Assembly: GCF_024362345.1 (NCBI RefSeq)
Contig: NZ_CP101505.1
Coordinates: 20,001 to 84,000 of the forward strand
Direction: 5' to 3'
Origin: Polaribacter dokdonensis
GTDB lineage: Bacteria; Bacteroidota; Bacteroidia; Flavobacteriales; Flavobacteriaceae
Length of the DNA: 64,000 nt
This document shows positions 7,074 to 24,902 of the stretch, in pieces (the stretch's first letter is position 1; the number at the start of each line of letters is the position of its first letter). The notes under the pieces are model-generated. The model was not told the DNA's origin. It saw only the letters and a list, made by a program, of their open reading frames with translations, and did not search any database. The translations under genes and the position numbers were made by a program.

Positions 7074-7077
7074 TATT

Positions 7078-7920: not shown

Positions 7921-9387
7921 ATGAGTTTAGAGCAGTATTTTTCACAGTTTAGAAAAGAAATTATTGGTATAAATCAAACTTTTACATCTCCTTATGGAGA
8001 GCAAAATTTGGTGTATTGTGATTGGACTGCAAGTGGTAGGTTATACAGACCTATAGAAAACAAACTCACTAACGAATTTGGGCCATTTGTTGCAAACACA
8101 CATACAGAAACATCTACTTCTGGTGCTGCAATGACATTGGCTTATCATGAAGCTAGAAAGATTATTAAAAAGCATGTAAATGCTAATTCTAGTGATGTTT
8201 TAATTACAACAGGTTCAGGAATGACAGGTGTTGTAAATAAGTTTCAGAGAATTTTGGGTTTAAAAGTTGCTGAGCATTTAAAAGATCATACAACAATTCC
8301 TGAAGAAATAAAACCAGTTGTTTTTGTTTCTCATATGGAGCATCATTCCAATCAAACTTCTTGGTTAGAAACTATTGCAGACGTAGAAGTAGTTCCTTGT
8401 GATGAGCATGGTTTATTATGCCTTAAAGAATTTGAAAAATGCATTAAAAAGCATGAGCATAGAGCCATTAAAATTGCTTCCATAACTTCTTGTTCTAATG
8501 TAACAGGTATTAAAACAAATTACCATAAAGTAGCTAAACTAATTCATAGTTATAATGGTTTATGTTTTGTTGATTTTGCTTGCTGTGCACCTTATGTAGA
8601 TATTAATATGCATCCAGAAGATGAGGATGAATATTTAGATGCAATCTTCTTTTCACCTCATAAATTTTTAGGAGGTCCAGGAAGTGCAGGTGTATTGATT
8701 TTTAATAAGAAATTATATAAAAATACTATTCCAGATAATCCAGGAGGAGGTACTGTTAGCTATACAAATCCTTGGGGAGAACATGATTATTTTGATGATG
8801 TAGAAACCAGAGAAGATGGAGGTACTCCAGCCTTTTTACAAACCATTAGAATAGCACTTTCAATTCAGTTGAAAGAGAAAATGGGTACACAAAAAATAAA
8901 GGAAAGAGAAGACGAAATTAATGCAATAGTATTTACTACTTTAGAACAATTAAAAGGTGTAAAAATATTAGCTCCAAATCAGAAAAAGAGACTTAGTATT
9001 TTTTCATTTTATTTCGAAAAATATCACTTTAATTTAGTGGTTAAATTGTTAAATGATCGTTTTGGAATTCAAACTAGAGGAGGCTGTTCTTGTGCAGGAA
9101 CTTATGGTCATTTCTTATTGAATGTTAATCAAGAAACTTCCAATAAAATTAAAAGTCAAATTTTAGAGGGTTGTAGTACAGAAAAGCCTGGCTGGGTTCG
9201 TTTATCTTTGCATCCAACAATCACAAATAAGGAGTTAGATTTTGTGTGTACTTCTTTAAAAGAATTATCAGTAAATATAGAAGAGTGGGCTTTAGATTAT
9301 AGGTACGATGCTACTAAAAATGATTATGTGCACAACACTATAGCTCCAATTGAAAAAGAGCTTGTTAGTTCTTGGTTTTCAATCTAG
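7921..9387 (+). CDS. Class V aminotransferase-fold PLP enzyme (cysteine desulfurase-like)
   Basis: A 488-residue fold-type I PLP enzyme. Visible marks are the small-domain entry LVYCDWTASGRLYRPIE, the HMEHHSNQTSW loop (cofactor-stacking His region), SCSNVTG, VDFACCAPY with the cofactor-nitrogen Asp, and the Schiff-base Lys in SPHKFLGGPGSAG. Near the C terminus RGGCSCAG resembles the cysteine-bearing loop of desulfurases. It is longer than NifS/IscS/SufS (about 400 residues) and there is no isc or suf context, so sulfur mobilisation is not established. The last 23 bp overlap the end of the converging acyltransferase gene. Confidence 0.78.
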   Translation: MSLEQYFSQFRKEIIGINQTFTSPYGEQNLVYCDWTASGRLYRPIENKLTNEFGPFVANTHTETSTSGAAMTLAYHEARKIIKKHVNANSSDVLITTGSGMTGVVNKFQRILGLKVAEHLKDHTTIPEEIKPVVFVSHMEHHSNQTSWLETIADVEVVPCDEHGLLCLKEFEKCIKKHEHRAIKIASITSCSNVTGIKTNYHKVAKLIHSYNGLCFVDFACCAPYVDINMHPEDEDEYLDAIFFSPHKFLGGPGSAGVLIFNKKLYKNTIPDNPGGGTVSYTNPWGEHDYFDDVETREDGGTPAFLQTIRIALSIQLKEKMGTQKIKEREDEINAIVFTTLEQLKGVKILAPNQKKRLSIFSFYFEKYHFNLVVKLLNDRFGIQTRGGCSCAGTYGHFLLNVNQETSNKIKSQILEGCSTEKPGWVRLSLHPTITNKELDFVCTSLKELSVNIEEWALDYRYDATKNDYVHNTIAPIEKELVSSWFSI

Positions 9388-10285
9388 ATTCCTGTAGTTT
9401 TTTCCATTCTTCAAATCGATCTTTGTGCTTAAATCTTTTATGAGACCAAAGGTAATTTTCTGGCTGTTTGTGTATATTTTTCTCCGTAATTTCTAAGAAT
9501 TTTTCAGTTATTTTATAGTCTTCAAACTCATTTGGGTTTTCTGCAATTAGCTCAAATTCAGTCTCATAATAACCTCTTTTAATTTTTTTAGATTTATAAT
9601 TGATAACTGCCAAATTATATTTTTTAGCTAGCATTTCTGCACCTGTATGTACAGGTACTTTTATTCCAAAAAACTCACACCAATAGAAGGTTTTTTCTAC
9701 ATGAGGAGATTGATCACTTAGCAATATATAAGCACCTTTAACTTTTTCTTCAAAGTTCTTTTTCATCAACTTCATGAAATTTGCTGTAGTTTCACCTTTA
9801 ACACCAAACTTTTCTCTACTTTCTTTTAAAGTGGTTTCAAAAGTTTCATTTCTTAGTTTGTTGTAGGCTCCAAAAACGTTAGTATTAATTACTAATGGAA
9901 GACTAAATGACCACTCCCAATTTGATAAGTGAGCCCCAACTAGTGCTATGCTTCTGCCTTCTTCTACATATTTGTTAACCAACTCTGGGTTTCTATAAGT
10001 ATACCTTTTTTTTATCTCCTTTTCAGAGATGGTAAAAGACTTTACACTTTCTAAAATGATGTCTGTAAAATGTCTGTAAAATTTCTTTGCGATTTGAGCT
10101 TTTTCCTCATCAGTTTTATTAGGAAAAGCGTAAGATATATTTTGTAAAATAACATCTTTTCTATAACCAATTAAGTAGTATAAAATTACATAAAAAAAGT
10201 CTGAAATTAAGTACAAAATTGCCATTGGTAATTTTGAAATTAACCAAAGTAGAGGATAGGTTAAATAGAAAACAATTGCATTCAT
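9365..10285 (-). CDS. LpxL/HtrB-family lysophospholipid acyltransferase, copy 1
   Basis: Members of this family add a secondary acyl chain to lipid A (or a related lipid) at the inner membrane. The 306-residue protein starts with a membrane helix (FYLTYPLLWLISKLPMAIL) and carries the catalytic-type motif GAHLSNWEW, corresponding to HX4(D/E), around residue 118. It then has LLSDQSP with the conserved Asp and HTGAEMLAKK. It is followed upstream (30 bp) by a second, clearly homologous gene in the same orientation, so this is a tandem duplication. Its 3' end overlaps the converging aminotransferase gene by 23 bp. Confidence 0.87.
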   Translation of the reverse strand: MNAIVFYLTYPLLWLISKLPMAILYLISDFFYVILYYLIGYRKDVILQNISYAFPNKTDEEKAQIAKKFYRHFTDIILESVKSFTISEKEIKKRYTYRNPELVNKYVEEGRSIALVGAHLSNWEWSFSLPLVINTNVFGAYNKLRNETFETTLKESREKFGVKGETTANFMKLMKKNFEEKVKGAYILLSDQSPHVEKTFYWCEFFGIKVPVHTGAEMLAKKYNLAVINYKSKKIKRGYYETEFELIAENPNEFEDYKITEKFLEITEKNIHKQPENYLWSHKRFKHKDRFEEWKKLQESRLKTKN

Positions 10286-10315
10286 TTATCGAAAAATTTA
10301 GCACAAATATCGTGT

Positions 10316-11242
10316 TTATTTTACAACTTTATTTTTCAATTTTACTTTTTTGTTTTTCTCCCAAATTTCATACTTGTCTTTATGTTTAAAACGTTTGTGA
10401 GACCATAAGTAAAATTCGGGTTGTTCTCTAACTAATTGTTCTGTTAGGCTAATATATTTATCTGTAATTTTATAATTTTCAAACTCATTTGGGTGTTCAG
10501 CAATTAACTCAAAAGTAGTTTCATAAAACCCTCTTTTTACTCTTTTTGTAGCGCAATTAATGACCACTAAATTAAACTTTTTAGAGAGGGTTTCTGCACC
10601 TACATGAAAAGGTACTTTTACCCCAAAAAATTCTTTCCAATAAAGCGTGTGTTCAACTTGTGGAGATTGATCGCTAATTAATAAATATGCCCCTTGAATT
10701 TTATTCTTAAAATCACTGTAAATTGCTTTTACAGTTTTCGTAGATTCATAGCATTTAAAACCAAAACGTTCTCTTGATGCTTTTACAGTTTTGTTGAAAA
10801 ATCGATTACCAATTTTTGTGTAAGCCCCATTAACACAAGTTTTTAAGACTAAAGGCGAGTTTACAGACCACTCCCAATTGGCTTGATGAGCACTTACTAA
10901 GGCAATACTTCTTCCTTGATTTATGTATTTGTTTACAAGCTCTGGATTTGAATATTTATAACGTCTTAAAATCTCTTTTTCAGAGATAGAAATAGCCTTA
11001 AGTGTTTCTATAAAAAGGTCAGAAAAATGTTTAAAAAATTCTTTTCTAATTCTAAGAATTTCCTTTAGTTTTTTGTCAGGAAAAGCAAGTTTTAAGTTGT
11101 CTAAAACTAACTTTTTTCTGTAGCTAAAAATATAATATACAAAAACAAAAATTATGCTAGAAATCACATGTAAAATTCGCATTGGAATTTTAGATATTAA
11201 CCAAATGATAGGATATAAAAATAGAAAAAATAAATACTGCAT
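10316..11242 (-). CDS. LpxL/HtrB-family lysophospholipid acyltransferase, copy 2
   Basis: A 308-residue paralogue of the adjacent gene, sharing blocks such as NPELVNKY, GRSIALV, AHQANWEWS (the HX4E motif), ISDQSPQVE, HPNEFE and LWSHKRFKHKDK. The two may act at different positions or acyl lengths of lipid A, as LpxL and LpxM do in enteric bacteria; the sequence alone cannot assign which. It is the first gene of the pair. It has a leading membrane segment, and its tail is basic (KNKKVKLKNKVVK). Confidence 0.87.
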   Translation of the reverse strand: MQYLFFLFLYPIIWLISKIPMRILHVISSIIFVFVYYIFSYRKKLVLDNLKLAFPDKKLKEILRIRKEFFKHFSDLFIETLKAISISEKEILRRYKYSNPELVNKYINQGRSIALVSAHQANWEWSVNSPLVLKTCVNGAYTKIGNRFFNKTVKASRERFGFKCYESTKTVKAIYSDFKNKIQGAYLLISDQSPQVEHTLYWKEFFGVKVPFHVGAETLSKKFNLVVINCATKRVKRGFYETTFELIAEHPNEFENYKITDKYISLTEQLVREQPEFYLWSHKRFKHKDKYEIWEKNKKVKLKNKVVK

Positions 11243-11305
11243 ATTTTTGTTTTCGTGTACAAATATGATAAATAATATTTAAAATCTTCACGATTTTTAC
11301 AATCC

Positions 11306-11322
11306 TATTTTTGCTATTTTTG
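11306..11322 (+). promoter_or_regulatory. Two successive -7 boxes (TATTTTTG) for the rhomboid gene
   Basis: TATTTTTG occurs at 11306-11313 and again at 11315-11322, both matching TAnnTTTG. The second is too close to the ATG at 11327 to leave a leader, so the first is more likely to be used. Confidence 0.45.
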
Positions 11323-11326
11323 TATT

Positions 11327-11983
11327 ATGTTAGAAGGAATAAATACAGTAGTCTTAATTGTTATAATTGCAAATGTTATATTTTCTATAAAAGGTTTCGA
11401 AGATTATGCTTTTTTAGATAAATATAAGTTTCAAGTGAGTAGGGTGAAAGGTGATGAAAAAATTAGAATGCTTACTTCTGGTTTTTTGCATGTAGATTGG
11501 ATGCATTTAATACTAAATATGTATGTTTTGTATGCTTTTGGAAATATTGTGATTTCTTTTCTAGGCACCTTGCCTTTTTTAATTATTTACTTTGGTAGTT
11601 TGATTGCTGGTAGTTTGTATACTTTACAATATCATAAAAACGAACCCTATTATAGTGCAGTAGGCGCTTCTGGTGCTGTTTCTGGGATTGTTTATGCGTC
11701 TATATTACTTTATCCAGGTATGAGTTTATACTTGTTTTTTATACCAGTGCCAATTCCTGGTTATATTTTTGGTGTTGGTTACTTGTTGTATTCTATTTAT
11801 GGGATGAAAAAACAAGTTGGTAATGTAGGCCATGCAGCACATTTAGGAGGAGCAATTGGTGGGTTTGCATTAACATTATTATTAAACCCTGTATTATTCA
11901 ATACAAATAGAATGTTCGTTATTCTATTGGCTATTCCTATTATTTTACTTCTGGTATTTAGTGATAAACTAAAAAGTCTATAA
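11327..11983 (+). CDS. Rhomboid-family intramembrane serine protease
   Basis: Rhomboids cut transmembrane helices within the lipid bilayer. This 218-residue protein has about six hydrophobic helices and the family signatures. These are WMHLILNMYVLYAFG (the H...N loop), the nucleophile Ser in VGASGAVSG around residue 115, and the partner His in GHAAHLGGAIGG around residue 169. Both catalytic residues are present, so it should be active. A C-terminal hydrophobic helix ends in a short basic tail. It is transcribed alone, with a promoter box directly before it and a shared hairpin terminator after it. Confidence 0.9.
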   Translation: MLEGINTVVLIVIIANVIFSIKGFEDYAFLDKYKFQVSRVKGDEKIRMLTSGFLHVDWMHLILNMYVLYAFGNIVISFLGTLPFLIIYFGSLIAGSLYTLQYHKNEPYYSAVGASGAVSGIVYASILLYPGMSLYLFFIPVPIPGYIFGVGYLLYSIYGMKKQVGNVGHAAHLGGAIGGFALTLLLNPVLFNTNRMFVILLAIPIILLLVFSDKLKSL

Positions 11984-11985
11984 AC

Positions 11986-12020
11986 GAAAAAAGACCTTAT
12001 TATTGCTAATAAAGTCTTTT
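11986..12020. terminator. Bidirectional terminator between rhomboid gene and tRNA-Gly
   Basis: AAAAGACCTTATTA and TAATAAAGTCTTTT form a 14-bp stem with one mismatch and a 4-nt TTGC loop. A/T runs on both sides allow it to act on the rhomboid gene (+) and the tRNA gene (-). Confidence 0.85.
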
Positions 12021-12022
12021 AG

Positions 12023-12095
12023 AGCGAAAGACCAGGTTCGAACTGGCGACATTCAGCTTGGAAGGCTGACGCTCTACCAACTGAGCTACTTTCGC
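12023..12095 (-). tRNA. tRNA-Gly(TCC)
   Basis: The minus strand gives a 73-nt cloverleaf with acceptor GCGAAAG pairing with CTTTCGC, a D-arm AGCTCAGTTGGTAGAGC, and an anticodon stem TCAGC/GCTGA enclosing loop CTTCCAA (anticodon TCC). The T-arm GTTCGAAC is intact and the discriminator is T. The CCA is not encoded. Confidence 0.96.
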
Positions 12096-12109
12096 ATGGT
12101 AAAGAGCTG

Positions 12110-12139
12110 CAAATATAGTATCATTTTTTACTTTTCCAA
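12110..12139 (-). promoter_or_regulatory. Promoter of tRNA-Gly
   Basis: On the minus strand a TTG (12137-12139) is separated by 19 bp from TATATTTG (12110-12117), a textbook Bacteroidota promoter, 14 bp before the tRNA 5' end. Confidence 0.75.
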
Positions 12140-12350
12140 TAATTAATGTAGAAATAATTTTAGCAAGTTGCTATCTGTTTTTATATCAAACTAATACCTT
12201 TAGAATATTTTTTATCTGATAAAATTAAATTCATGATTGGTTGCAATTCAAGATTAAAAACTATTATTAATAAGATAGATACTTTAATTTCAATTTATTA
12301 TTTTGCACATCTAAAATTAGTTGTAATAAAACAGCTTTAATAAATTAGCT

Positions 12351-12821
12351 ATGAAGAAAAAGATTTTACTACTATTTATTTTAAGTATTTCAATTTCTGT
12401 TTTTTCACAGTCAACAAATTCATCAGCAGGAGGTAAGGCAACTGGTAATGGATCTGTAACCTACACAGTTGGGCAAAATATTTATACTACGAACATTGGA
12501 ACCAATGGTTCAGTTTCTCAAGGTGTTCAGCAAAGCTTAGAAATTTTTGTATTAAGTAATAAAGATTTTAAAGAACTAAATTTAAATGCTTTTACCTACC
12601 CAAATCCTACCAAAGATAAAATTACTCTAGAACTTTCAAATCTTGAGCAAACCAATTTAAGTTTTACAATGTTCGATATTAAAGGAAGAACTTTACTAAA
12701 AGGAGTAATCAAAGAAAAGAATACTAGTATTATTATGAAAGATTATTCAGCTGGAGTATATCTTTTAAAAGTACATCAACAAAATAAAGAATTAAAAACA
12801 TTCAAAATTATAAAAAAGTAA
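12351..12821 (+). CDS. Small secreted protein with T9SS type A sorting domain
   Basis: The 156-residue protein has a signal peptide ending near VFSQ and a short Ser/Gly-rich stretch (TNSSAGGKATGNGSVTYTVG). The C-terminal type A sorting domain of the type IX secretion system runs from about residue 80: YPNPTKDKITLEL, MFDIKGRTLL, and YSAGVYLLKV before a basic KTFKIIKK tail. It is therefore sent across the outer membrane and probably attached to the surface. The non-sorting part is only about 50 residues and has no recognisable domain. It is 1 bp from the next gene, so the two are probably co-expressed. Confidence 0.85.
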   Translation: MKKKILLLFILSISISVFSQSTNSSAGGKATGNGSVTYTVGQNIYTTNIGTNGSVSQGVQQSLEIFVLSNKDFKELNLNAFTYPNPTKDKITLELSNLEQTNLSFTMFDIKGRTLLKGVIKEKNTSIIMKDYSAGVYLLKVHQQNKELKTFKIIKK

Positions 12822-12822
12822 C

Positions 12823-13785
12823 ATGAAAAGAATTTTAACCTTAGTAATTTTAGTATGTATCAGTTTTTCTGCTTTAGGTCAATCACCAGAAAAAATGAGT
12901 TATCAAGCTGTAGTTAGAAATGCAGATGGTAGTTTAGTGAGTGAGAAGTCTGTAGGTATGAAAATTAGTATCATAAAAACTTCTACAACAGGTACAATTG
13001 TATATTCTGAAACTCATAACCCTACAACTAATACTAATGGGTTAGTTACTTTCGAAATTGGTACAGGAAATGTTGTTAACGGAACTTTTGCAACTATAGA
13101 TTGGGGTGCTGATTCTTATTTTATTAAAACAGAAACAGATATTGATGGTGGATCTAACTATACTATTTCAGGAACAAGCCAATTCTTAAGTGTACCATAT
13201 GCACTATATGCTAAAAATGTTTTTAGTGGTAATTACGATGATTTAACAAATAAGCCTAAAGTAACTGAAGTTAAAACATATCAAATAGGCGATTTTGTAC
13301 AAGGAGGTATTGTTTTTTGGGTAGATGAGACTGAACAACATGGTTTAGTAGTTGCGAATGTAAATCAAAGTGCAGCTATGAGATGGCATGCAGGAACATT
13401 TGGTAATACCCATGCAAAGGGTAATGGATTGTATGCAGGTAAATCTAATACTTCGATTATTATACCTTCTATAATTGCGATAGGTGATGATGGAGATAAT
13501 TTTGCAGCAAGATTATGTAATGATTTACAAATAATTCAAGATGGTGTAACTTATGGAGATTGGTATTTACCAAGCAGACTAGAAATGAATTTAATTTATC
13601 AAAGTAGGTCTGCAGTTAATACAACAGCTGCAGCTAATAGCGGAGATAGTTTAGTGAATGATGTATATTGGACATCTACAGAAAGTTCAGATAATAGTGC
13701 ATATGGTTTAGATTTTTCTAATGGTCAAGAATCAACAATTTTTAAAACCTTTGCAAATTCTGTTCGGGCTATAAGATCTTTCTAA
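12823..13785 (+). CDS. Secreted protein with C-terminal DUF1566/Lcl-like domain
   Basis: A 320-residue exported protein, signal peptide ending near ALGQ. Residues 22-135 form an N-terminal module common in Bacteroidota surface proteins (MSYQAVVRNADGSLV, YSETHNPTTNTNGLV, SVPYALYAKN). The C-terminal part, from QGGIVFWVDETEQHG, matches the DUF1566/Lcl type: WYLPSRLEMNLIYQ, VYWTSTESSDNSAYG and a final VRAIRSF. Lcl-type domains are implicated in adhesion or carbohydrate contact, but no activity can be read here. The gene follows the T9SS-sorted protein by 1 bp and lacks its own sorting domain, so the pair may work together at the cell surface. Confidence 0.8.
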   Translation: MKRILTLVILVCISFSALGQSPEKMSYQAVVRNADGSLVSEKSVGMKISIIKTSTTGTIVYSETHNPTTNTNGLVTFEIGTGNVVNGTFATIDWGADSYFIKTETDIDGGSNYTISGTSQFLSVPYALYAKNVFSGNYDDLTNKPKVTEVKTYQIGDFVQGGIVFWVDETEQHGLVVANVNQSAAMRWHAGTFGNTHAKGNGLYAGKSNTSIIIPSIIAIGDDGDNFAARLCNDLQIIQDGVTYGDWYLPSRLEMNLIYQSRSAVNTTAAANSGDSLVNDVYWTSTESSDNSAYGLDFSNGQESTIFKTFANSVRAIRSF

Positions 13786-13937
13786 AAAATTATGATTTAA
13801 TTTTTTTAAAGCTTAAATCAAGTGATCAGTGTTTTATATCATTATATATTAGGTGGTTAATCCCTATATTTAATGGTTGTTTTTTTCGATTCAATTCTTT
13901 TTTGTTATTTTCGTGAGCATAATTGCTAGCCAAAACA

Positions 13938-14498
13938 ATGAAAAAAATTAAAATAGTCTTAATAGACCATGTTAATTCTTCCCTAATTAGAACAACTGAT
14001 TTATTAAAAAAATCAAACAAAGTAGAAATTACAGGTATATTTAATGACGCAGAGTTAGCTTTAGAGTTTATTAAAGAGACCCAGCCAGATTTAGTAATTT
14101 CTGAAATAGAAATGACAGGTGTTTCTGGAATAGCCATTGCTAAAGAAATAAAAAAGCAATTTTTAGATACAAAAGTTATCTTTTATTCCGAACAAGCTCA
14201 TTATGCCATCAGTGCTATAAAGGTTGCTGCTTTTGATTATCTTCTTAAACCCTTATCAATAGAAGAATTACAACAATGTATTCATCGCTATCAAATTAGT
14301 CATCAAATAGATTTAAATAAAAGAGAATTACAAATTATTAAAAAAATGTCTGAAGGATTAAATAGTAAATCTATAGGAGAAACTTTATTTATAAGTAAAC
14401 ATACTGTAGATAAATATAGAAGAAATATACTTGAAAAAACCAATTGCAATAACACTGCAGAGTTGGTTAAATTTGTAGCTCAAGTTGGTATTATTTAG
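13938..14498 (+). CDS. LuxR/NarL-type regulator with pseudo-receiver domain
   Basis: A DNA-binding regulator with an N-terminal receiver domain (about residues 3-120) and a C-terminal LuxR-type helix-turn-helix (RELQIIKKMSEGLNSKSIGE, then ISKHTVDKYRRNIL). I start it at ATG 13938; an upstream in-frame TTG adds five residues. The receiver keeps the conserved Lys in LLKPLS and a Ser in the Thr/Ser switch position (IFYSEQ). However, the phospho-acceptor site reads DLVISEIEM, with Glu in place of Asp, and the acidic pair is reduced to IDH. It is unlikely to be switched by ordinary phosphorylation and may be constitutively active. No kinase lies next to it. It sits immediately upstream of the giant adhesin and is a candidate regulator of it. 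Confidence 0.85.
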   Translation: MKKIKIVLIDHVNSSLIRTTDLLKKSNKVEITGIFNDAELALEFIKETQPDLVISEIEMTGVSGIAIAKEIKKQFLDTKVIFYSEQAHYAISAIKVAAFDYLLKPLSIEELQQCIHRYQISHQIDLNKRELQIIKKMSEGLNSKSIGETLFISKHTVDKYRRNILEKTNCNNTAELVKFVAQVGII

Positions 14499-14572
14499 AT
14501 ATTAAATTATTAATAATTTGTATTTTATGTAAAAGTATCATTTGTAGTACTTTTAATACTTGATTTATTATA

Positions 14573-14580
14573 TATATTTG
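14573..14580 (+). promoter_or_regulatory. -7 promoter box (TATATTTG) upstream of the adhesin leader
   Basis: TATATTTG matches TAnnTTTG and lies about 218 bp before the adhesin start, giving a long leader that contains the repeats and hairpin listed separately. No TTTG is found at the usual -33 distance. Confidence 0.5.
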
Positions 14581-14594
14581 TTAACCGTAAAGGA

Positions 14595-14729
14595 CACCCT
14601 ACTACTCTTTTACAATGAAGACTCCCTGATCTTCCAATAGTATTGAAAAATACTATCATTTTTTATAGAATTTATTATTCGTAGAAGTAATCCCACCACA
14701 CTTTTATGTTAGAAGGCTCCCTAATCTTC
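14595..14729 (+). repeat. Two imperfect direct repeats with mini-hairpins in the adhesin leader
   Basis: Two blocks 95 bp apart share the order C-rich start, ACTCTTTTA/CACTTTTAT, then a GAAG...CTTC hairpin. Copy 1 is GAAGACTCCCTGATCTTC (14617-14634) and copy 2 is GAAGGCTCCCTAATCTTC (14712-14729). Both expose a CTCCCT loop. A terminator-like hairpin lies between them. Repeated loops of this kind could bind a regulatory protein or RNA; that is inference. Confidence 0.6.
14637..14664 (+). terminator. Terminator-like hairpin inside the adhesin leader
   Basis: ATAGTATT and AATACTAT form a perfect 8-bp stem with a GAAA loop (14637-14656), followed by CATTTTTTA. Located about 75 nt after the -7 box and 135 nt before the adhesin start codon, it could end a short RNA or act as an attenuator. 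Confidence 0.6.
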
Positions 14730-14797
14730 AAAGTTTAAAATCAATTAATAATTGCATTTTTAATATTGAGTAACCCTAACAGTATAAATTACACACT

Positions 14798-17700
14798 ATG
14801 ATTAAAAAAACTACGTTTTTAGCCCTATTTAGCTTTTTAGCTGTCTTTTCAGCTTTTAGCAACAATTCCCTTTCCTCTGAAGATTTTGGAGTTCCAACAG
14901 TTACTTTTGGTTCTATGATTTCAGATAATGCTACAAATACTTTAGCAAAAACAGGTGATGAAATTACAATAACATTTACGTCAGACGAAGACATTAATAC
15001 ACCTACAGTAACAATAGCTGGGCAATCAGCTGTAGTTGGTGGTTCTGGTTCCTCTTGGACAGCAACATATACAGTACAAGTAGGAGATGTACAAGGTTCA
15101 ACTGCGTATTCAATTACAAACATATCATCAACTTCAACTTCTGAAGCTGGAACAGATGTAAGTGGTTCTGGAGCTGTAACCATTGATACTGCAGATCCAT
15201 CTGTTTCAAGTATTGCAATGGTTTCAGATAATACTACAAATACTTTAGCCACAACAGGTGATGAAATAACTTTAACATTTGTTTCAAGCGAGACAATTAA
15301 TACGCCTACTGTAACTATCGCAGGTCAATCAGCAACAGTAACTAATACAGGTAACAACTACACTGCTACATATACGGTTCAAGCAGGAGATGCTCAAGGA
15401 GCTGCTGCATATTCAATTTCAAATATTTCAGATTCTTCTGGAAATACAGGTTCTACTTCATCTGGTTCTGGAGCTGTAACCATTGATACAGCAAGCCCAT
15501 CTGTTTCAAGCATTGCAATGGTTTCAGATAATACCCCAAATACTACAGCTAGAACTGGAATTGAAATAACTTTAACGTTTGTTTCAAGTGAGACAATTAG
15601 TACACCTACAGTAACTATTGCTGGTCAATCAGCTACTGTAACAAATTCAGGTAATAATTACTCAGCCTCATATTTTGTGCAAGCAGGAGATACTCAAGGG
15701 GCTGCTGCTTATTCAATTTCAAATTTCTCAGATGTTTCTGGGAATACTGGTTCTACTTCATCAGGTTCAGGAGCTGTAACTATTGATACTGTAGATCCTT
15801 CTGTTTCAAATATTGCTATGGTATCAAATAATACTGCAGACACTTTAGCAAAAGCAGGAGATGTTATCACCTTAACTTTTACCTCTAGCGAGTCAATTAA
15901 TACACCTACAGTTACTATTGCTACACAAACAGCATCAGTAACAAATACAGGAAATAATTACACTGCTACATATACAGTTCAAGCAGGTGATTTTCAAGGA
16001 GCTACTGCATACCAAATTTCAAATTTCTCTGATAGTACAGGTAATGCTGGTTCTGTTTCTTCGGGTACAGGAGCTGTTACTATAGATACAACAGCACCAA
16101 CAGTAGGTGTTACCTCAAATACAATAGATGTAAATTTAAATACAAGTACAAGTATAACTGCAGCAGATGTTAATGATGCATCATCAGACAATAACACAAG
16201 TCCAGCTAACTTAACACTAGCATTAGATCAATCAACATTTAGTTGTTCAGATATTGTTGCTGGTCAAGTTTCTACAGCAGTAACAGTTACGTTAACTGTA
16301 ACAGATGAAGCTGGTAATTCTGCAAGTTTAACAAAAAATGTTAATGTAATAGATGACGAAGCACCAGCAAACGTTGCTTTAGTAAATCCTACTTATGTGC
16401 ATAGAACAGGAACGGCTTATGTAGAACAAGGGCTTACTTATAATGAAGCTTGTTTCGAAGAAGTTGTTATTGTTTCTAGTGATTTAGATGTAAATCAGTG
16501 GGGTACATATACAATAGTATATAAGGTTGTAGATAAATCAGGTAATGAATCTGCAACAGTTACAAGAACACAAGTTGTAAATGATGTGCCTACAACAGAT
16601 GCAGCAAATTTTACAGTAAATCAAGATACAGAAAACCATGTTTTTGATGTCTTAGATGGAGATAGTTTTGGAAATGATGGGGCAGAGTCTTTTACGATTT
16701 CTGGAGCAATGAGTGCACAAAATGGTACTTTAATATTGCAAGATTTAGGTACAGCAGATCCAACAGATGATTTAGTAGTATATACACCTAGAGCAACATA
16801 TAATGGTCCAGATAGTTTTACATATACTTTAGAAGACGAAAATGGAGATACAGTTACAACTACAGTTAATATTGTAGTTAGACCAATAGTTCCTGTGCCA
16901 GTAAATGATGTAGCAACAGTAGATAAAAATAGTTCAAATAATATTATAGCAGTATTGGCTAATGATGATTTTGGTGGTAACGAAGCAAATGCTACACACC
17001 CACTAACTTTTACTAACGGAAGTAAAAGTAGTGCAAGTCCAGAAGGAGGTTTAATTAGTATTGAAGATAATGGTACTCCAAACATTTTAACTGACGATTT
17101 TATTCATTATACACCAGCAGCAGACTTTATAGGTACTGATACCTTTATGTATACCATTACAGATTTTGATGGCGATGCTACCACTGCTTCAGTTGAAGTA
17201 ACAGTAGTTGAAGGTTCAAATGGTAATACAACACCAACTGCAACAGCAGATACTGCATCAGTTGATTTTGAAGAGGTAGAAGCAATAATAGATGTTTTAG
17301 CTAATGATTCAGCAGGTTCAGATTTATATATAGATAATGGTCTAACCTTAACAAATGGTACAACCTCAGGAGCTAGTGCAAATGGAGGGTTGATTTCAGT
17401 GGATAATAATGGTACAGCAACTACTTCAGATGATACATTCAAATATTCTGCACCTGCAGGTTTTGATGGTTTAGATACATTTAGTTATACTATTACAGAT
17501 ACAACAGGAGATGCATCAACAGCATTAGTTTCAATAACAGTTGGGGCAGCTGCTCCTTTAGAAGGTGCTGTAGAAGATGTTGTTGCTACACCAGCAAATA
17601 CACCTATTTTAATCGATGTTTTAGCCAATGATAATTTTGGAACTTTCGGTTCTGGTACTTTATTAATAAATAGTCCAGATCACTTAACTGGTGATAGTGC

Positions 17701-20700
17701 ACAAGGAACTGGTACTTTAACTTTGGATAATGGAGGAACAGGAACTATTAATGAAGCAGATGATAAGATATTGTATTCACCACCAACTAATTTTAATGGT
17801 GTTGATACTTTTGATTACACATTAACAGTAGATTCTAATCAGTATCAAGGAACAGTTACAATTACTGTAGGAACAGTAGTTCCACCAGCTACAACACCAA
17901 CAGCAGTAGATGATTCAATCACGGTTGATTTTGAGAGTTCAAATACAGTTATAGCAGTATTAGACAATGATTCTTATGGGTCAGATGGTTTAAGCACAAC
18001 ACATCCATTAACTTTAGTAAATGGTAAACAAAGCACAGCAACTACAAAGGGTGGTTTAATTAGTGTTTCAGATCACCTTTTAATAAATGATGCTTCAGAC
18101 GATGTTGTATTATATTCAGCACCAGCAGGATATAGTGGATCAGATTCATTTTCGTATACAATTACAGATTTAAATGGAGATGCAGCTACAGCTACAGTAG
18201 ATATTTTAGTAAGTCCAGCAGCAGCTTTAGCAGATCCTACAGCAGTAGATGATGCTTTTAGTGTAGCAAATGGTTCATCATCAAATGATTTAGATATTTT
18301 AGATAATGATCAGTTTGGATCAGAAGGATTAGCAAGCGTTACTTTATCAGTAGGTTCAGAAGGAGGTACTTTAGCTATCAATGCAAATGGAACAGCGAAT
18401 GCAGAAGACATTACAGTAACTTATACACCAGCAGCATTATTTGAAAATGGAGTTGAAACCTTTACCTATACTTTAGAAGATAATGGTACAGATACAGCTA
18501 CAGCTACAGTAACAGTAACAGTAGGAACAGTTGCACCAGCAGTAACAGTTCCAACAGCAGTTAATGATGCAGTAACAGTTTCAGCAGGAAGTGTTGATAA
18601 TGTAATAGATGTATTGGTTAATGATACACCAGGATCAGAAGGATATATAGATGGCGGGTTAACGATGACAAATGGAACGTTAACAAGTGCAAGTACAAAA
18701 GGAAGTGCAATAAGCATAGATAATAAAGGTACGAATGATACAACAGATGATGTATTTAACTATACACCATCAGCTTTAGCAGTAACAGATGGTACAGATA
18801 CATTTAGTTATACAATTACAGACGCAACAGGAGATGCATCAACAGCTACAGTAACAGTAACTATTGGTCCTGCAGCAACAGACGTTCCAACAGCATTAGA
18901 TGATACAGCAACAGCAGTAGAAGATACAGCAATAAGTATCGATGTTTTAGACAATGATGTTTATGGAGATGATGGAGCAGCTTTAGTGGATGCATTAACA
19001 GTAGGTGCTAATTCTGACTTAGGAGGAACTACAGCAGTAGTTGCAGGTGAGATTGAATATACACCAGCAGCAAATTTTGTAGGAACAGATACTTTTGAGT
19101 ATACTATTGAGGATGGAAATGGAGATACAGCAACAGCAACAGTAACAGTAACAGTAACTGCAGAGGTAGTTGTAAATGGTACACCAACAGCAGTAGATGA
19201 TTCAATCACGGTTGATTTTGAGAGTTCAAATACAGTTATAGCAGTATTAGACAATGATTCTTATGGGTCAGATGGTTTAAATACAACACATCCATTAACT
19301 TTAGTAAACGGAAAACAAAGTACAGCAACTACAAAGGGTGGTTTAATTAGTGTTTCAGATCACCTTTTAATAAATGATGCTTCAGACGATGTTGTATTAT
19401 ATTCAGCACCAGCAGGATATAGTGGATCAGATTCATTTTCGTATACAATTACAGATTTAAATGGAGATGCAGCTACAGCTACAGTAGATATTTTAGTAAG
19501 TCCAGCAGCAGCTTTAGCAGATCCTACAGCAGTAGATGATGCTTTTAGTGTAGCAAATGGTTCATCATCAAATGATTTAGATATTTTAGATAATGATCAG
19601 TTTGGATCAGAAGGATTAGCAAGCGTTACTTTATCAGTAGGTTCAGAAGGAGGTACTTTAGCTATCAATGCAAATGGAACAGCGAATGCAGAAGACATTA
19701 CAGTAACTTATACACCAGCAGCATTATTTGAAAATGGAGTTGAAACCTTTACCTATACTTTAGAAGATAATGGTACAGATACAGCTACAGCTACAGTAAC
19801 AGTAACAGTAGGAACAGTTGCACCAGCAGTAACAGTTCCAACAGCAGTTAATGATGCAGTAACAGTTTCAGCAGGAAGTGTTGATAATGTAATAGATGTA
19901 TTGGTTAATGATACACCAGGATCAGAAGGATATATAGATGGCGGGTTAACGATGACAAATGGAACGTTAACAAGTGCAAGTACAAAAGGAAGTGCAATAA
20001 GCATAGATAATAAAGGTACGAATGATACAACAGATGATGTATTTAACTATACACCATCAGCTTTAGCAGTAACAGATGGTACAGATACATTTAGTTATAC
20101 AATTACAGACGCAACAGGAGATGCATCAACAGCTACAGTAACAGTAACTATTGGTCCTGCAGCAACAGACGTTCCAACAGCATTAGATGATACAGCAACA
20201 GCAGTAGAAGATACAGCAATAAGTATCGATGTTTTAGACAATGATGTTTATGGAGATGATGGAGCAGCTTTAGTGGATGCATTAACAGTAGGTGCTAATT
20301 CTGACTTAGGAGGAACTACAGCAGTAGTTGCAGGTGAGATTGAATATACACCAGCAGCAAATTTTGTAGGAACAGATACTTTTGAGTATACTATTGAGGA
20401 TGGAAATGGAGATACAGCAACAGCAACAGTAACAGTAACAGTAACTGCAGAGGTAGTTGTAAATGGTACGCCAACAGCAGTAGATGATAATGTGTCTGTA
20501 GTAAGATTCAGTAGTTCAAATAGTATTGATGTATTATCAAATGATGATTTTGGTTCAGATGGTCCAAGTCTTACACATCCTATTACATTATCTAATGGAA
20601 GATCTACTGGGGTTTCTTCAGGAGGTAGGTTCATAAGTGTAAATAGTAATAATACAATTTCATATTCTCCTGGAAGTTTAATTTCTGATAGTTTTGAGTA

Positions 20701-21061
20701 TACTATTACAGATGAAAATGGAGATGCAACTACAGGTACTGTGTTTATTACAACAACTGCTAGTAGAGAAACACCTAATAGTGTAACTATTGGTAACACA
20801 GAGGTTTTTGTTGATAATTTCTTAAGTTATCCAAATCCGTCAGAAGGGAATTTAAGTACTACTTTATTGAGTAGTGTAACTACAAAAGCAACTATGATTT
20901 TATTTGATGCGACAGGTAAAGTGGTATCAAGTTCTACATTAGACTTAGAAGAAGGAGTTAATCAATTTGATTTTAACTTTAATGTAAAAGCTGGTATGTT
21001 GTTTATGAGAATTATTAGTGCAGAAAAAGATTTTGGAACTAGTAAAGTAGTTTTTAAATAA
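14798..21061 (+). CDS. Giant multidomain T9SS-sorted adhesin (2087 aa)
   Basis: A very large predicted surface protein. A signal peptide (MIKKTTFLALFSFLAVFSAFS) is cut near residue 22; its last residue here is the site region. Residues about 28-430 hold four Ig-like repeats of about 100 residues sharing TVTIAGQSA and SGSGAVTIDT. Next is an HYR/DUF5011-like part (about 430-600, YKVVDKSGNESATV). From about 600 to 1985 there are about thirteen cadherin-like/tandem-95 repeats marked by VLxNDxxG, DTFSYTITD and DATTATV, probably calcium-binding. The C terminus (from about 2000, YPNPSEGNLS to VVFK) is a type A sorting domain. Residues 1033-1461 and 1462-1890 are an almost exact duplication. It likely mediates attachment or surface movement. 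Its leader carries repeats and a hairpin, and a strong terminator follows. Confidence 0.93.
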   Translation: MIKKTTFLALFSFLAVFSAFSNNSLSSEDFGVPTVTFGSMISDNATNTLAKTGDEITITFTSDEDINTPTVTIAGQSAVVGGSGSSWTATYTVQVGDVQGSTAYSITNISSTSTSEAGTDVSGSGAVTIDTADPSVSSIAMVSDNTTNTLATTGDEITLTFVSSETINTPTVTIAGQSATVTNTGNNYTATYTVQAGDAQGAAAYSISNISDSSGNTGSTSSGSGAVTIDTASPSVSSIAMVSDNTPNTTARTGIEITLTFVSSETISTPTVTIAGQSATVTNSGNNYSASYFVQAGDTQGAAAYSISNFSDVSGNTGSTSSGSGAVTIDTVDPSVSNIAMVSNNTADTLAKAGDVITLTFTSSESINTPTVTIATQTASVTNTGNNYTATYTVQAGDFQGATAYQISNFSDSTGNAGSVSSGTGAVTIDTTAPTVGVTSNTIDVNLNTSTSITAADVNDASSDNNTSPANLTLALDQSTFSCSDIVAGQVSTAVTVTLTVTDEAGNSASLTKNVNVIDDEAPANVALVNPTYVHRTGTAYVEQGLTYNEACFEEVVIVSSDLDVNQWGTYTIVYKVVDKSGNESATVTRTQVVNDVPTTDAANFTVNQDTENHVFDVLDGDSFGNDGAESFTISGAMSAQNGTLILQDLGTADPTDDLVVYTPRATYNGPDSFTYTLEDENGDTVTTTVNIVVRPIVPVPVNDVATVDKNSSNNIIAVLANDDFGGNEANATHPLTFTNGSKSSASPEGGLISIEDNGTPNILTDDFIHYTPAADFIGTDTFMYTITDFDGDATTASVEVTVVEGSNGNTTPTATADTASVDFEEVEAIIDVLANDSAGSDLYIDNGLTLTNGTTSGASANGGLISVDNNGTATTSDDTFKYSAPAGFDGLDTFSYTITDTTGDASTALVSITVGAAAPLEGAVEDVVATPANTPILIDVLANDNFGTFGSGTLLINSPDHLTGDSAQGTGTLTLDNGGTGTINEADDKILYSPPTNFNGVDTFDYTLTVDSNQYQGTVTITVGTVVPPATTPTAVDDSITVDFESSNTVIAVLDNDSYGSDGLSTTHPLTLVNGKQSTATTKGGLISVSDHLLINDASDDVVLYSAPAGYSGSDSFSYTITDLNGDAATATVDILVSPAAALADPTAVDDAFSVANGSSSNDLDILDNDQFGSEGLASVTLSVGSEGGTLAINANGTANAEDITVTYTPAALFENGVETFTYTLEDNGTDTATATVTVTVGTVAPAVTVPTAVNDAVTVSAGSVDNVIDVLVNDTPGSEGYIDGGLTMTNGTLTSASTKGSAISIDNKGTNDTTDDVFNYTPSALAVTDGTDTFSYTITDATGDASTATVTVTIGPAATDVPTALDDTATAVEDTAISIDVLDNDVYGDDGAALVDALTVGANSDLGGTTAVVAGEIEYTPAANFVGTDTFEYTIEDGNGDTATATVTVTVTAEVVVNGTPTAVDDSITVDFESSNTVIAVLDNDSYGSDGLNTTHPLTLVNGKQSTATTKGGLISVSDHLLINDASDDVVLYSAPAGYSGSDSFSYTITDLNGDAATATVDILVSPAAALADPTAVDDAFSVANGSSSNDLDILDNDQFGSEGLASVTLSVGSEGGTLAINANGTANAEDITVTYTPAALFENGVETFTYTLEDNGTDTATATVTVTVGTVAPAVTVPTAVNDAVTVSAGSVDNVIDVLVNDTPGSEGYIDGGLTMTNGTLTSASTKGSAISIDNKGTNDTTDDVFNYTPSALAVTDGTDTFSYTITDATGDASTATVTVTIGPAATDVPTALDDTATAVEDTAISIDVLDNDVYGDDGAALVDALTVGANSDLGGTTAVVAGEIEYTPAANFVGTDTFEYTIEDGNGDTATATVTVTVTAEVVVNGTPTAVDDNVSVVRFSSSNSIDVLSNDDFGSDGPSLTHPITLSNGRSTGVSSGGRFISVNSNNTISYSPGSLISDSFEYTITDENGDATTGTVFITTTASRETPNSVTIGNTEVFVDNFLSYPNPSEGNLSTTLLSSVTTKATMILFDATGKVVSSSTLDLEEGVNQFDFNFNVKAGMLFMRIISAEKDFGTSKVVFK
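17894..20467 (+). repeat. Near-perfect 1,287-bp tandem duplication within the adhesin gene
   Basis: 17894-19180 and 19181-20467 are two head-to-tail copies of a 1,287-bp (429-codon) unit encoding four cadherin-like domains. The differences I can see are a handful of bases clustered near 17990-18035, one causing Ser/Asn (GLSTTHP versus GLNTTHP); the rest reads identically. The period is a multiple of three, so copy-number change keeps the frame. Confidence 0.95.
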
Positions 21062-21146: not shown

Positions 21147-21550
21147 TTATAAATCAATTGATGCTTTCGCTTCTTGTACTTTTTCTAAAAGTTGAGAAGT
21201 GTCAAATGGTTTACTTAAAAAGTAATCTGCTCCCAAATTAAAAACAACTGTTTCAGTGCCAACAGTTCTTTTGTTATTATTATATGCAGTAACAGCAATC
21301 ATTTTTATTTTAGGGTTACTTCTTTTTAATGGTCCCATGATACGAATACCATTATCAGAATTTAAACTACCATAAATATTTTTATGATATAAATCTACAA
21401 CCATAATGTCTGGCATTTCTATATCTATACTAGCTAGAGCTTCAGAACCAGTTTTTACTAAATTAACAGAATAATCTTTTGTTTTATAAGTGCTTGTTTC
21501 CATTCTTCTGCTAATATAAAATCATCTACTATAATTAAAACGCGTAACAT
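21147..21550 (-). pseudogene. Single-domain response regulator, frameshifted
   Basis: From ATG 21550 the frame reads MLRVLIIVDDFILAEEWKQA, a perfect receiver-domain start with the acidic Asp pair. It then runs off into another frame at an A-rich tract (AAAACAAAAG on the minus strand, 21476-21486). The following frame continues KDYSVNLVKTGSEAL, VVDLYH (phospho-acceptor Asp), VTAYNN (Thr) and LSKPF (Lys) to the stop at 21147. Restoring one A joins both halves into a normal domain of about 134 residues. It begins 15 bp after the phytochrome gene and would have been its partner regulator. The downstream ATG at 21503 gives a 118-residue product lacking the first strand and the acidic pair, unlikely to be functional. 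Confidence 0.82.
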
Positions 21551-21565
21551 ATTTAATAGTAAAAA

Positions 21566-24116
21566 TTAATTGGTTAGTTTATCTAAAATACTAAATAATT
21601 GTTCATCTGCAATTGGTTTTATAAAAACAGGTGCTTCTGGGAAAGATTTATTTTGTAAAAATGTATCTCCATAACCTGTAATATAATGAAAAGGAATTCC
21701 TTTTAAATTACACACTTGGGCAACTCTTGAAGAAGTTTCATTTTTTAAATTAACATCTAAAAGTGCAAAATCATATGTTTTTTTCTCTAAAGAATTTAGC
21801 GCTGTTTTTTGGTTAGAAAAGATATCTACATTAGATGTTATTTTATTTTCTATTAGTTCTTTTGTTTGATTTGCAATTATAAAATCATCTTCTAAAACAA
21901 GAATATTTAATTTCTTTTTTTCTATATACTCTTCTTTATCCTTAAATTTTATTTTTTCTGTTGTAAACATTTCTGTTTCTTTTCTCAGAATTGTTTTTAA
22001 AGGAATTTGAATTGTTACCTCTAAACCAGACTCTTTAAAATTCATTGATGAGCTTCCACCAAATTCATAACCAATTGCTTTTTCAATAATGGTTCGACCA
22101 AAACCTTTATGCTTTGGTTTGGTAACTTTTGGCCCATTTTCTTCTTTCCAAAATATAAATATGTCATTTTCTGATATATGCCAAGAAACTGTGAGTTTAC
22201 CATTTTCTGAAGATAATGATCCATATTTTGCAGAATTTGTAGTTAGTTCATGTAAAACTAAAACAATTATAGGAGCAACATTAGATGCTAGTTCAATAGA
22301 TGGTCCTTTAATCTCATAGTTTTTATCACTAAGATCAAAAGGAGATAGTTCTTTTACTAAAATCTTTTCTAAGTTAATACTACCAAAACTACTTTCTGTT
22401 AGCATATTATTCACATCCGCTAATGCAGTAATTCTTTTTTCTAGAGCCAAAACATAGCTTTCTATAGATTTCTCTTTGCTAGCAGTTTGTTTAGAAACAG
22501 ATTTAACCAAGGCTAAAATATTTCTGACTCTATGGTTTAATTCTTTTACAAGAATTTTTGATCTTTCAGACTCAGAAACTTCCTTTTTCTCTTTAACAAT
22601 TTCTATTTGAATGTATTTTTTAAACGTTTCTATAGCGTTTTTTGCTACAAAAAGATCTTGAGTAGTCCAAATATCTGAATCTTCAGAATTGTTTTCTATA
22701 AATTCATTAAAAGAACTTCTTGGGTGTAATCTAACATTTTCTTTTTCAAATATTAATTCTTTTTCTGGACTTCCTGCCCATTGAATATTTTTTGAAAATT
22801 TATCTCTGAAAAAAAACATGTTTATCTGTGGAAATTCAGAAATTAATTGCATAAAAATTAAACCTCTGGTATCTTTAATCCCCTTATCTACAAATTTAGA
22901 AATGTTAGTGTAACTTTGTATTTCTTCTTTTTTAGTATTTAGTGTATCAACTAAAGTTTGAATGGAATTTAGTTCTGGACAATTACCGTAAGTTTTAATA
23001 TTTTTATCTATAACGCAGGCAATACCATCACAATGAATAATTTCAAATAGATTTTTTGCCTGAGCATTCCAGAACTCGTCTAATTTGAATGAATTTGTTT
23101 CTATTGCAATTAAATCATTACCATTTTCTAAAATATCTTTAATTGTCTTTTGAGCTTTTTGTCTTGTTTGATGTTCTAGAACCATATTAATTGTTTGCCC
23201 CAATATATCTGCGGAATAAATTTCTTGTGGAGATAAATTTTTACAAGACTTATGATGATGTGCAAATAACCCCCAAAGTTTACCATTTATAATAATAGGT
23301 ATAGTCATAGAACTAACAACTTCCATATTCACTAAGTATTGATTATGAACTGGGGCAGCTGCTCTTAAGATGCTGTAAGTTAGGTTTAGTTTATTGTCAG
23401 AATTTTTATGGACTAAAATCTTAGAACCTTCAGAACTAGTATTTTTAATAAAACGTATTGGGTTTTTTAAAAAAAGATCTCTTGCTCTTGGTGGAATATC
23501 AAAAGCAGGAAATCTTAAACCTAAAAATGTATTGATAGAAGGTGCTGAAGTAGCTTCGGCTATTATTTCTCCAGAATTGTCAGGTAGAAATTTATAAGCC
23601 ATAACCCTATCAAAACCAGTTATCTTTTGTAATGATTGTACAGCATTATTTAAAATATCTTCTATGGTTTCATGACCGTGAGTTCTTGCTAATGCCCACT
23701 TTATATTATTATTATTAATATTTATATATTTAAAATCTTTTCCAGTTGGTAATAATTCAATAACAACAGAATTATCTGTTCTAAATAAAGAAATGTCAAT
23801 AGAGTTCGCATTATTTTCTATCACTTTTACATGTTCTCGTTGATGCTTAGTAGAATTATGAGAAGCTATGTTTAAAATATCAAGCGTCATCTGGAGATAA
23901 AATATCTCTAATTGACTTATTTAATGCAGCATTAATTTTTAATATTTTATCTAAATTACTAGATGCATGTGTAATTGTTAATGATTTAAATTCAAAAGCT
24001 AATAATGCACCATAATTTTGTACACTTTCAATCCATTATATAGGTTCATTATTACAATGTTCTAAAGCTTTATCTTCAAGTGCTTTAGATGCTTTTATGT
24101 TATTTTTTGAATTCAA
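21566..24116 (-). pseudogene. bphP: Bacteriophytochrome histidine kinase, N-terminally disrupted
   Basis: Bacteriophytochromes sense red/far-red light through bound biliverdin. The long open part (774 codons from 23890) has a GAF domain with FDRVMAYKF, the PAFDIP Asp, the APVHNQYL His and AHHHKSC. A PHY-like region with WAGSPEKE and HPRSSFNEF follows, then an HWE/HisKA_2-type kinase (ELNHRVRNILAL, HELTTNSAKYG) and a C-terminal receiver (LLDVNL, YITGYG, FIKPI). Upstream, in another frame, lies the missing PAS domain: ALEHCNNEPI, stop (TAA, 24036-24038), then WIESVQNYGALLAFE and ITHASSNLDKIL, ending at a frameshift near 23884-23890. The Cys in EHCNNEPI is the expected biliverdin-attachment residue. 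Translation probably began at TTG 24116, overlapping the heme oxygenase gene. A truncated product lacking the PAS domain could still be made. Confidence 0.88.
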
Positions 24117-24627
24117 TGTTTGCGTATTTGGTTAAAGTTGAAAAAGTTTCATTTGCTCCATTTATTAAATCAATTTCATTATCTGCTAAAAGCAATCCCA
24201 ATATTTTCATTTGAGAGTTAGAAGTCTCAACGAGTTTTGTAATATAATGTGATTGAATAGGAGGGGCATGTTCTAGAGCCATTTTTCTTATGACTCTTTC
24301 ACCCATTGCAGAACCAGCAAACACATAGAAGACTCCTAAGCATGTGATGTATTTTTAACCTCTAATTGATCAATTATGTCATTATTTGATTTTAAATCCG
24401 ATTTTAAAGAAGATATCAAATCATCATTGTAAGTACTTTTAATATTAAAAGTATCTTCTAAATGATGCAAAGATTTTTGATATTTTAATCTAGACCTTAA
24501 TATAGATTGGTGAAATGTTTCCAATGTAGATATAGAAATACCTTCGCTAAAATTAAAGGAATTTTCGACAGCTAAATGATTGTTTTTAGTAGAATTCGTA
24601 GAGCTTTTTACGCAGATCAGATTTCAT
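24100..24627 (-). pseudogene. bphO: Biliverdin-forming heme oxygenase, two frameshifts
   Basis: Heme oxygenase makes the biliverdin chromophore of phytochromes. From ATG 24627 the frame reads MKSDLRK. After one extra A in an A5 run (24605-24609) the next frame gives SSTNSTKNNHLAVENSF, whose T-x3-H-x2-VE pattern holds the proximal heme His, and continues to QLEVK near 24352. One missing A there (T5 on the plus strand, 24352-24356) shifts the frame again to KYITCLGVFYVFAGSAMGER, the family LYVLEGSxLGG-like signature, ending at 24100. Corrected length is about 175 residues, normal for bacterial BphO. It is the first gene of the broken phytochrome operon. Each lesion alone would abolish the full-length enzyme. 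Confidence 0.82.
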
Positions 24628-24811: not shown

Positions 24812-24843
24812 AAAAAACGAATTGTGAAACACAATTCGTTTTT
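24812..24843. terminator. Strong hairpin next to the left tRNA remnant
   Basis: AAAAACGAATTGTG and CACAATTCGTTTTT form a perfect 14-bp stem with an AAA loop. It lies just beyond the 3' end of the displaced tRNA-Met half and was probably the original terminator of that tRNA. A near copy, with loop AGA, lies beside the intact tRNA at 48332-48356. Confidence 0.85.
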
Positions 24844-24853
24844 AATTACTTTT

Positions 24854-24902
24854 AACTTGTAGCGAAGACGGGATTTGAACCCGTGACCTCAGGGTTATGA
24901 AT
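24854..24902 (+). repeat. Left attachment repeat: displaced tRNA-Met 3' half
   Basis: These 49 bp are identical to 48372-48420 and include the tRNA-Met 3' half from the anticodon loop to the discriminator base (24860-24902 on the minus strand). Sequence to the right (ATTTTAAG...) has no tRNA 5' half, so it is a remnant left by integration and not a tRNA gene. Confidence 0.92.

What the first reader, a model, noticed from the sequence alone, without database searches (positions are those of the whole stretch)
21147..24627. A complete bacteriophytochrome operon caught in decay
Heme oxygenase, phytochrome kinase and response regulator genes lie in order on the minus strand, each broken. I count five lesions in 3.5 kb: two single-base shifts in A runs of the oxygenase (24605-24609, 24352-24356), a TAA directly after the chromophore-Cys motif CNNEPI (24036-24038), a shift near 23884-23890 that ends the PAS domain, and a shift in the regulator (21476-21486). 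I see no obvious frame break in the conserved genes elsewhere, so this looks like local loss of light sensing. The long intact GAF-PHY-kinase part suggests recent loss, or that a truncated blind kinase is kept.
Basis: partly seen in the sequence, partly recalled or inferred. Interest (0 to 1): 0.85.

Follow-up and report, generated by a model that had tools for sequence, protein, structure and literature searches.

The report
Recently broken bacterial red-light sensor operon
A marine bacterium of the Polaribacter group carries the wreck of a three-gene red-light-sensing operon that a sister genome keeps whole, so it has probably lost this light sense not long ago; this is ordinary gene decay, but unusually well documented.

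Summary
A heme oxygenase (bphO), bacteriophytochrome kinase (bphP) and receiver-only regulator operon on the minus strand (24627-21147) is broken in all three genes. I add a late nonsense codon, three in-frame indels and an altered acidic-pocket residue. The operon is intact at the same place in sister genome G056 (Polaribacter), and the same gene order occurs in Gilvibacter and in the six best-matching loci of 80. A database BphP 97% identical to the residual frame (unnamed source) is full length. Fifty other aligned genes show no upheld break. The residual 774-codon frame has 17 derived changes against 4 in that near-twin (13 v 3, strict polarisation): relaxed constraint rather than a maintained "blind kinase", though one outgroup sequence has as many private changes at conserved sites. 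Best reading: recent pseudogenisation of the genome's only detected phytochrome; rhodopsin, BLUF and photolyase-family genes remain. Ordinary in kind. Reads and population data were not available.

The parts
24085..24627 (-). bphO pseudogene (bacteriophytochrome-linked heme oxygenase, about 183 aa when intact): frameshifts at 24593-24594 and 24337-24339, in-frame 9-nt loss near 24179, nonsense codon 24100-24102
   Evidence: family identity from profile A5 matching HemO 1j77 at 7e-9
21566..24116 (-). bphP pseudogene (PAS-GAF-PHY-HWE kinase-REC, about 851 aa when intact); likely TTG start at 24114-24116 overlapping the bphO end (start inferred from P0001)
24036..24038 (-). in-frame TAA directly after the chromophore-Cys motif CNNEPI
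23882..23890 (-). bphP frameshift that ends the PAS reading frame; the residual ORF's ATG (23888-23890) lies here in the other frame
21566..23890 (-). residual open frame, 774 codons: GAF, PHY, HWE_HK and REC, no PAS_2 and no chromophore Cys
21147..21550 (-). response regulator pseudogene (receiver only, about 135 aa when intact): frameshift in the A run 21482-21485, acidic-pocket Glu to Val near 21527-21529
24830..24902 (-). copy of the 3' half of tRNA-Met plus terminator, 92% identical to 48346-48420: far attachment site of the neighbouring island, just upstream of the operon (not part of the operon)

Best explanation
The locus is a recently pseudogenised bacteriophytochrome operon. In intact relatives BphO would make biliverdin from heme, BphP would bind it through the Cys just before EPI and switch its HWE kinase and C-terminal receiver with red/far-red light, and the small receiver protein would carry the signal on (function inferred from families, not shown here). 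In this genome all three genes have lost their reading frames (shown). BphO cannot be made whole, the PAS/Cys part of BphP is separated from the rest by a stop and a shift, and the regulator is broken before most of its fold. The 774-codon GAF-PHY-kinase-REC remnant is most likely a by-product that is drifting (inferred). The genome has no other detected phytochrome and keeps rhodopsin, BLUF and photolyase/cryptochrome-family genes, so the inferred effect is loss of this red-light input alone.
For: Lesions read in sequence. Intact operon at the same place in G056, with synteny over nearly the whole window at 85-90% nucleotide identity. Full-length near-twins of all three proteins: P0001 (851 aa with PAS_2, 97% to the residual frame), P0122 BphO (87 of 89 and 72 of 81 columns identical to two window pieces), P0125 regulator (103 of 110). 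Same three-gene order in Gilvibacter and in the six best-matching of 80 loci, L056-L061. No stop or upheld frameshift in 50 other aligned genes. Polarised changes 17 in the window against 4 in P0001; 13 v 3 strict. Operon dN/dS to G056 0.143-0.235 against a median of 0.061 in 31 non-island genes, 3 of which reach 0.143. Only one PHY match in the genome; rhodopsin, BLUF, FAD_binding_7 present.
Against: No reads were available, so assembly error is excluded only statistically. The kinase and receiver motifs of the remnant are still present. The regulator's C-terminal piece shows no excess of derived changes (2 in the window, 3 in its near-twin, 2 ambiguous). At columns invariant in the other seven sequences the window has 6 private changes (4 without the out-of-frame first residues), above P0001 (1), P0002 (3), P0004 (2) and G056 (0), but below P0003 (8) and the more distant P0005 and P0006. 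The dN/dS values mostly reflect time before the loss. The near-twins are protein records without DNA here and without named source organism, so no synonymous clock could be put on the last branch and 'recent' rests on protein similarity.
Confidence: 0.9

Rival explanations
1. A truncated, light-independent kinase (GAF-PHY-HWE-REC restarted at 23890) is still made and kept for signalling without biliverdin.
For: 774 codons stay open and the H-box, N-box, G-box and receiver Asp motifs are present. At least four of the 120 listed database relatives lack PAS_2 (P0016, P0024, P0120; P0010 has PHY-kinase-REC only). The regulator's C-terminal piece shows no excess of changes.
Against: Excess derived changes over the near-twin, including P286H, Y397F, L444S and N604K at positions invariant in seven relatives. 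Operon partners bphO and regulator are broken. The restart ATG lies over the shift, in a frame that relatives do not use there. Whether the PAS-less relatives are genes or fragments was not resolved (of 395 genomes sampled from the order only the own genome matched P0016 at 1e-100).
Confidence: 0.07
2. Sequencing or assembly errors in an intact operon.
For: The regulator shift is in an A run, and no reads can be checked.
Against: The genome is one contig, 99.98% complete. Lesions include substitutions to stop codons, a 2-base loss outside a homopolymer and an acidic-pocket change; they cluster in three functionally linked genes and were not upheld in any of 50 others. Missense changes are in excess too.
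Confidence: 0.03
3. The neighbouring tRNA-Met island caused the loss, for example by cutting the operon off from its promoter.
For: The island's attachment-site copy lies about 200 bases upstream of bphO.
Against: G056 has the syntenic island and tRNA-Met 3' remnant at the same place together with an intact operon.
Confidence: 0.05

Closest known systems
bphO-bphP-regulator operon of sister genome G056 (regulator identical to a protein NCBI names from Polaribacter sp. MED152)
   Same: Same three genes, order, strand, overlap and chromosomal place; residual frame 79% identical
   Different: All three frames are open there, broken here
HWE-kinase bacteriophytochrome operons of Gilvibacter (G477) and of loci L056-L061 (Flagellimonas, Flavivirga, Agaribacillus, three uncultured Flavobacteriaceae)
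   Same: PAS-GAF-PHY-HWE-REC type kinase preceded by the same divergent heme oxygenase and followed by a receiver protein
   Different: bphO and bphP frames open; the regulator frame was seen whole in Gilvibacter only, elsewhere as a match whose stops were not counted. L056-L061 are 41-44% identical to the Gilvibacter protein. Six other Bacteroidota loci of the 80 (L120, L122, L126, L130-L132; 27-29% identical) gave no bphO match
Database BphP P0001
   Same: 97% identical over the residual frame

Membership tests
Bacteriophytochrome (BphP) | PAS_2-GAF-PHY photosensory core in one frame | tested here: not met
   Window frame has GAF and PHY only; P0001 and G056 have PAS_2 too
Bacteriophytochrome (BphP) | N-terminal biliverdin-binding Cys in the same product as GAF-PHY | tested here: not met
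   CNNEPI is followed at once by TAA, then a frameshift; the role of this Cys is recalled, not from a call
HWE histidine kinase | HWE_HK domain with H-box His and ATP-binding motifs | tested here: met
   PF07536 E 6e-20; motifs LNHRVRN, HELTTN, GFGRTII present (their roles recalled). Whether it is expressed was not testable
Heme oxygenase (BphO) | Profile similarity of the intact family to solved heme oxygenases | tested here: met
   A profile of 13 relatives (three of them more distant neighbours of other phytochromes, several trimmed to the matched part) matches HemO 1j77 at 7e-9 and pa-HO 1sk7 at 2e-4. With 4 sequences it was weaker: no heme oxygenase or 0.009. Single sequences: G056 BphO 0.0065, below the Pfam cut-off; 1 of 13 matches Pfam at 1e-5, 12 do not at 0.01. 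NCBIfam none for 3 tested. AlphaFold model too poor to use
Heme oxygenase (BphO) | Intact reading frame carrying the conserved His17 and Y-V-x-x-G-S-x-x-G stretch | tested here: not met
   Shift before His17 and a second shift directly before GVFYV in the window
Receiver-only response regulator | Complete receiver fold with acidic pocket and phospho-acceptor Asp | tested here: not met
   Frameshift after about 22 codons; pocket Glu replaced by Val; the open C-terminal piece matches PF00072 positions 19-111 at 2e-12, full-length P0125 positions 1-111 at 1e-17

The most novel reading that the evidence does not exclude
The PAS-less GAF-PHY-HWE-REC remnant is translated and works as a light-blind, constitutive kinase, and such PAS-less forms (compare P0016, P0010) arise repeatedly when marine flavobacteria shed red-light input.
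Probability: 0.06. Interest if true: 0.5.

Novelty: new member of a known kind. Interest (0 to 1): 0.3.

Why it matters
It is a clean natural knock-out: one genome with the operon broken in all three genes, a syntenic sister with it intact, and nearly identical full-length proteins in the databases. That makes a direct comparison possible of what red-light sensing by an HWE phytochrome does in a rhodopsin-bearing marine flavobacterium, and of which settings relax selection on it. As a phenomenon, decay of a niche-specific sensor is ordinary.

Tried and rejected
An AlphaFold model of BphO from three sequences had mean pLDDT 48, so no fold search was run. PDB profile searches with 4 BphO sequences were weak: no heme oxygenase with A1, HemO 1j77 at 0.009 with A4; significant only with 13. 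The Pfam Heme_oxygenase model finds nothing in the own genome, so absence of a second heme oxygenase cannot be claimed, because that model also misses 12 of 13 members of this set. Frameshift flags in three other genes were cleared. A genus-wide search with BphO P0122 found it in 3 of 166 genomes: G000 (broken), G056, and a distant match in G001. A search of 395 genomes sampled from the order for the PAS-less relative P0016 found only the own genome at 1e-100. Papers: seven searches, within open-licence PMC only; in the titles and abstract beginnings listed I saw no report of this loss. I read passages of PMC4422448 and PMC4053972 (not used); all other papers were seen as listings only.

Rejected: insertion of the tRNA-Met island as the cause, because G056 has island and intact operon; assembly error as the main explanation.

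Full report
What is there. On the minus strand, 24627 to 21147 holds three adjacent genes in the order heme oxygenase, bacteriophytochrome kinase, receiver-only response regulator. The only long open frame is 21566-23890 (774 codons), with GAF, PHY, HWE_HK and a receiver (the receiver is just under Pfam's cut-off). There is no PAS_2 domain and no chromophore-binding Cys in that frame.

Lesions. I placed them against the intact operon of sister genome G056 and close full-length proteins. bphO: the frame is good to codon 11 and shifts at 24593-24594; it shifts again at 24337-24339, directly before GVFYV; 9 nt are missing in frame near 24179; a TAA at 24100-24102 removes the last codons. bphP: it probably starts at a TTG (24114-24116) inside the end of bphO, reads 26 codons to CNNEPI, and meets TAA at 24036-24038. 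It lacks 6 nt in frame near 23919, shifts at 23882-23884, and has 3 extra nt in frame near 23717. Regulator: the frame shifts in the A run 21482-21485, and the acidic-pocket Glu seen in P0124-P0127 is Val here.

Is it local? Blastn aligns the window to G056 in two long blocks, 2-14861 and 16283-64000, at 85% and 90% identity; the gap lies in a long repeat gene. Of 54 G056 ORFs of at least 110 aa, one long gene was not aligned and three are the operon. None of the other 50 has a stop or an upheld frameshift; three automatic flags turned out to be terminal 3-nt gaps or nothing.

Relatives. G056 is in the window's genus; its regulator protein is 100% identical to one NCBI names from Polaribacter sp. 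MED152, although the contig lengths (2,957,500 and 2,961,474) differ, so G056 may be a conspecific rather than MED152 itself. A protein named from Polaribacter sp. P097 is a full-length BphO (P0121). P0122 (BphO) and P0125 (regulator) are full-length near-twins of the other two genes. In 166 genomes of the genus only G000 and G056 carry a match above 50% identity; several others carry phytochrome-like matches at 26-32%. In 397 genomes sampled from the family one further genome carries a match above 50%: G477, whose protein equals P0006, named Gilvibacter sediminis. Gilvibacter and the six best-matching GTDB loci (L056-L061, all Bacteroidota) have the same three-gene order, the heme oxygenase overlapping or abutting bphP and the regulator directly downstream. 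Six more distant Bacteroidota loci among the 80 (L120, L122, L126, L130-L132) gave no bphO match. All 80 loci matched BphP; two (L066, L093) show one stop in the alignment, not followed up.

Identity of BphO. Single sequences are poorly recognised: G056 BphO reaches Pfam Heme_oxygenase at 0.0065, below the cut-off, and 1 of 13 relatives matches at 1e-5. A profile of the 13, three of which are more distant neighbours of other phytochromes, matches solved heme oxygenase HemO (1j77) at 7e-9 and pa-HO (1sk7) at 2e-4. Conserved positions include a His at residue 17 and Y-V-x-x-G-S-x-x-G, which I recall as the heme-ligand and distal-helix features of heme oxygenases.

Is the remnant kept? Aligning the 774-residue frame with P0001 and six outgroup sequences, and polarising by majority, 19 differences are derived in the window and 4 in P0001, with 2 ambiguous. 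Two of the 19 fall in the first three residues, which are read out of frame; without them it is 17 to 4 (p 0.007), and without the one-residue insertion 16 to 4 (p 0.012). Some calls rest on few outgroups; keeping only well-polarised ones gives 13 to 3 (p 0.02; 12 to 3 without the insertion, p 0.035). Changes include P286H, Y397F, L444S and N604K at columns invariant in the seven others. Against this: counting private changes at columns invariant in the rest, the window has 6 (4 without the out-of-frame residues) and P0001 has 1, but P0003 has 8; the kinase and receiver motifs survive; and the regulator's C-terminal piece shows no excess (2 v 3). The bphO pieces are few events (window 1 and 4, near-twin 1 and 1, four ambiguous columns). 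Pairwise dN/dS to G056 is 0.143 for bphP, 0.235 for bphO and 0.231 for the regulator, against a median of 0.061 in 31 other non-island genes. Most of that divergence predates the loss and codons beside the shifts may be misaligned, so it is weak evidence.

Consequence. The genome has a single PHY match and keeps a rhodopsin, a BLUF protein and three FAD_binding_7 photolyase/cryptochrome-family matches. The inferred effect is loss of red/far-red input alone. What the system controlled is unknown.

Surroundings. The operon lies just outside a 23.5-kb island bounded by tRNA-Met (48377-48451) and a copy of its 3' half (24830-24902), with an integrase beside the tRNA and metal-efflux genes. Island genes differ from G056 by a median dS of 0.051 (19 genes, maximum 0.269), and the 31 other genes by 0.869; the operon itself lies at 0.70-1.25, so it belongs to the old backbone shared by the two genomes. 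As G056 has island and intact operon together, the island is not a sufficient cause.

Literature. PMC4422448 (passages read) discusses the Polaribacter sp. MED152 phytochrome and places it beside that of Acaryochloris marina in its trees. None of the listings of seven paper searches showed a report of this loss; only open-licence PMC was searched.

Verdict. A real, probably recent pseudogenisation of an operon whose intact form is known. The finding is correct in substance; its more exciting option, a retained blind kinase, is disfavoured but not excluded.

Noticed in passing
24830-48451: A 23.5-kb island with integrase, two P-type ATPases, an RND pump and a CusB/HlyD-type gene, bounded by tRNA-Met and a copy of its 3' half. 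Its median dS to G056 is 0.051 while 31 flanking genes have 0.869, so at least one of the two species probably gained it recently at the same site.
   Followed up: partly
14798-21061: A 2087-codon repeat gene (cadherin-like by eye, no family search) with identical shadow ORFs 1,287 bp apart (18466 and 19753), which suggests a recent internal duplication; in G056 the same gene is split into 1773- and 431-codon frames.
   Followed up: no
50489-50886: A 117-codon G056 ORF with dS 0.013 amid neighbours near 1; a conserved element or recent exchange. No Rfam family matches there.
   Followed up: no
1470-3299: A 609-codon gene with dS 0.136 to G056, below its neighbours (0.6-0.85).
   Followed up: no
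67-138: Flavo-1 RNA (RF01705) match.
   Followed up: no
P0016, P0010, P0024, P0120: Database BphP relatives without PAS_2 (P0010 also without GAF): possible parallel truncations or gene-prediction fragments.
   Followed up: partly
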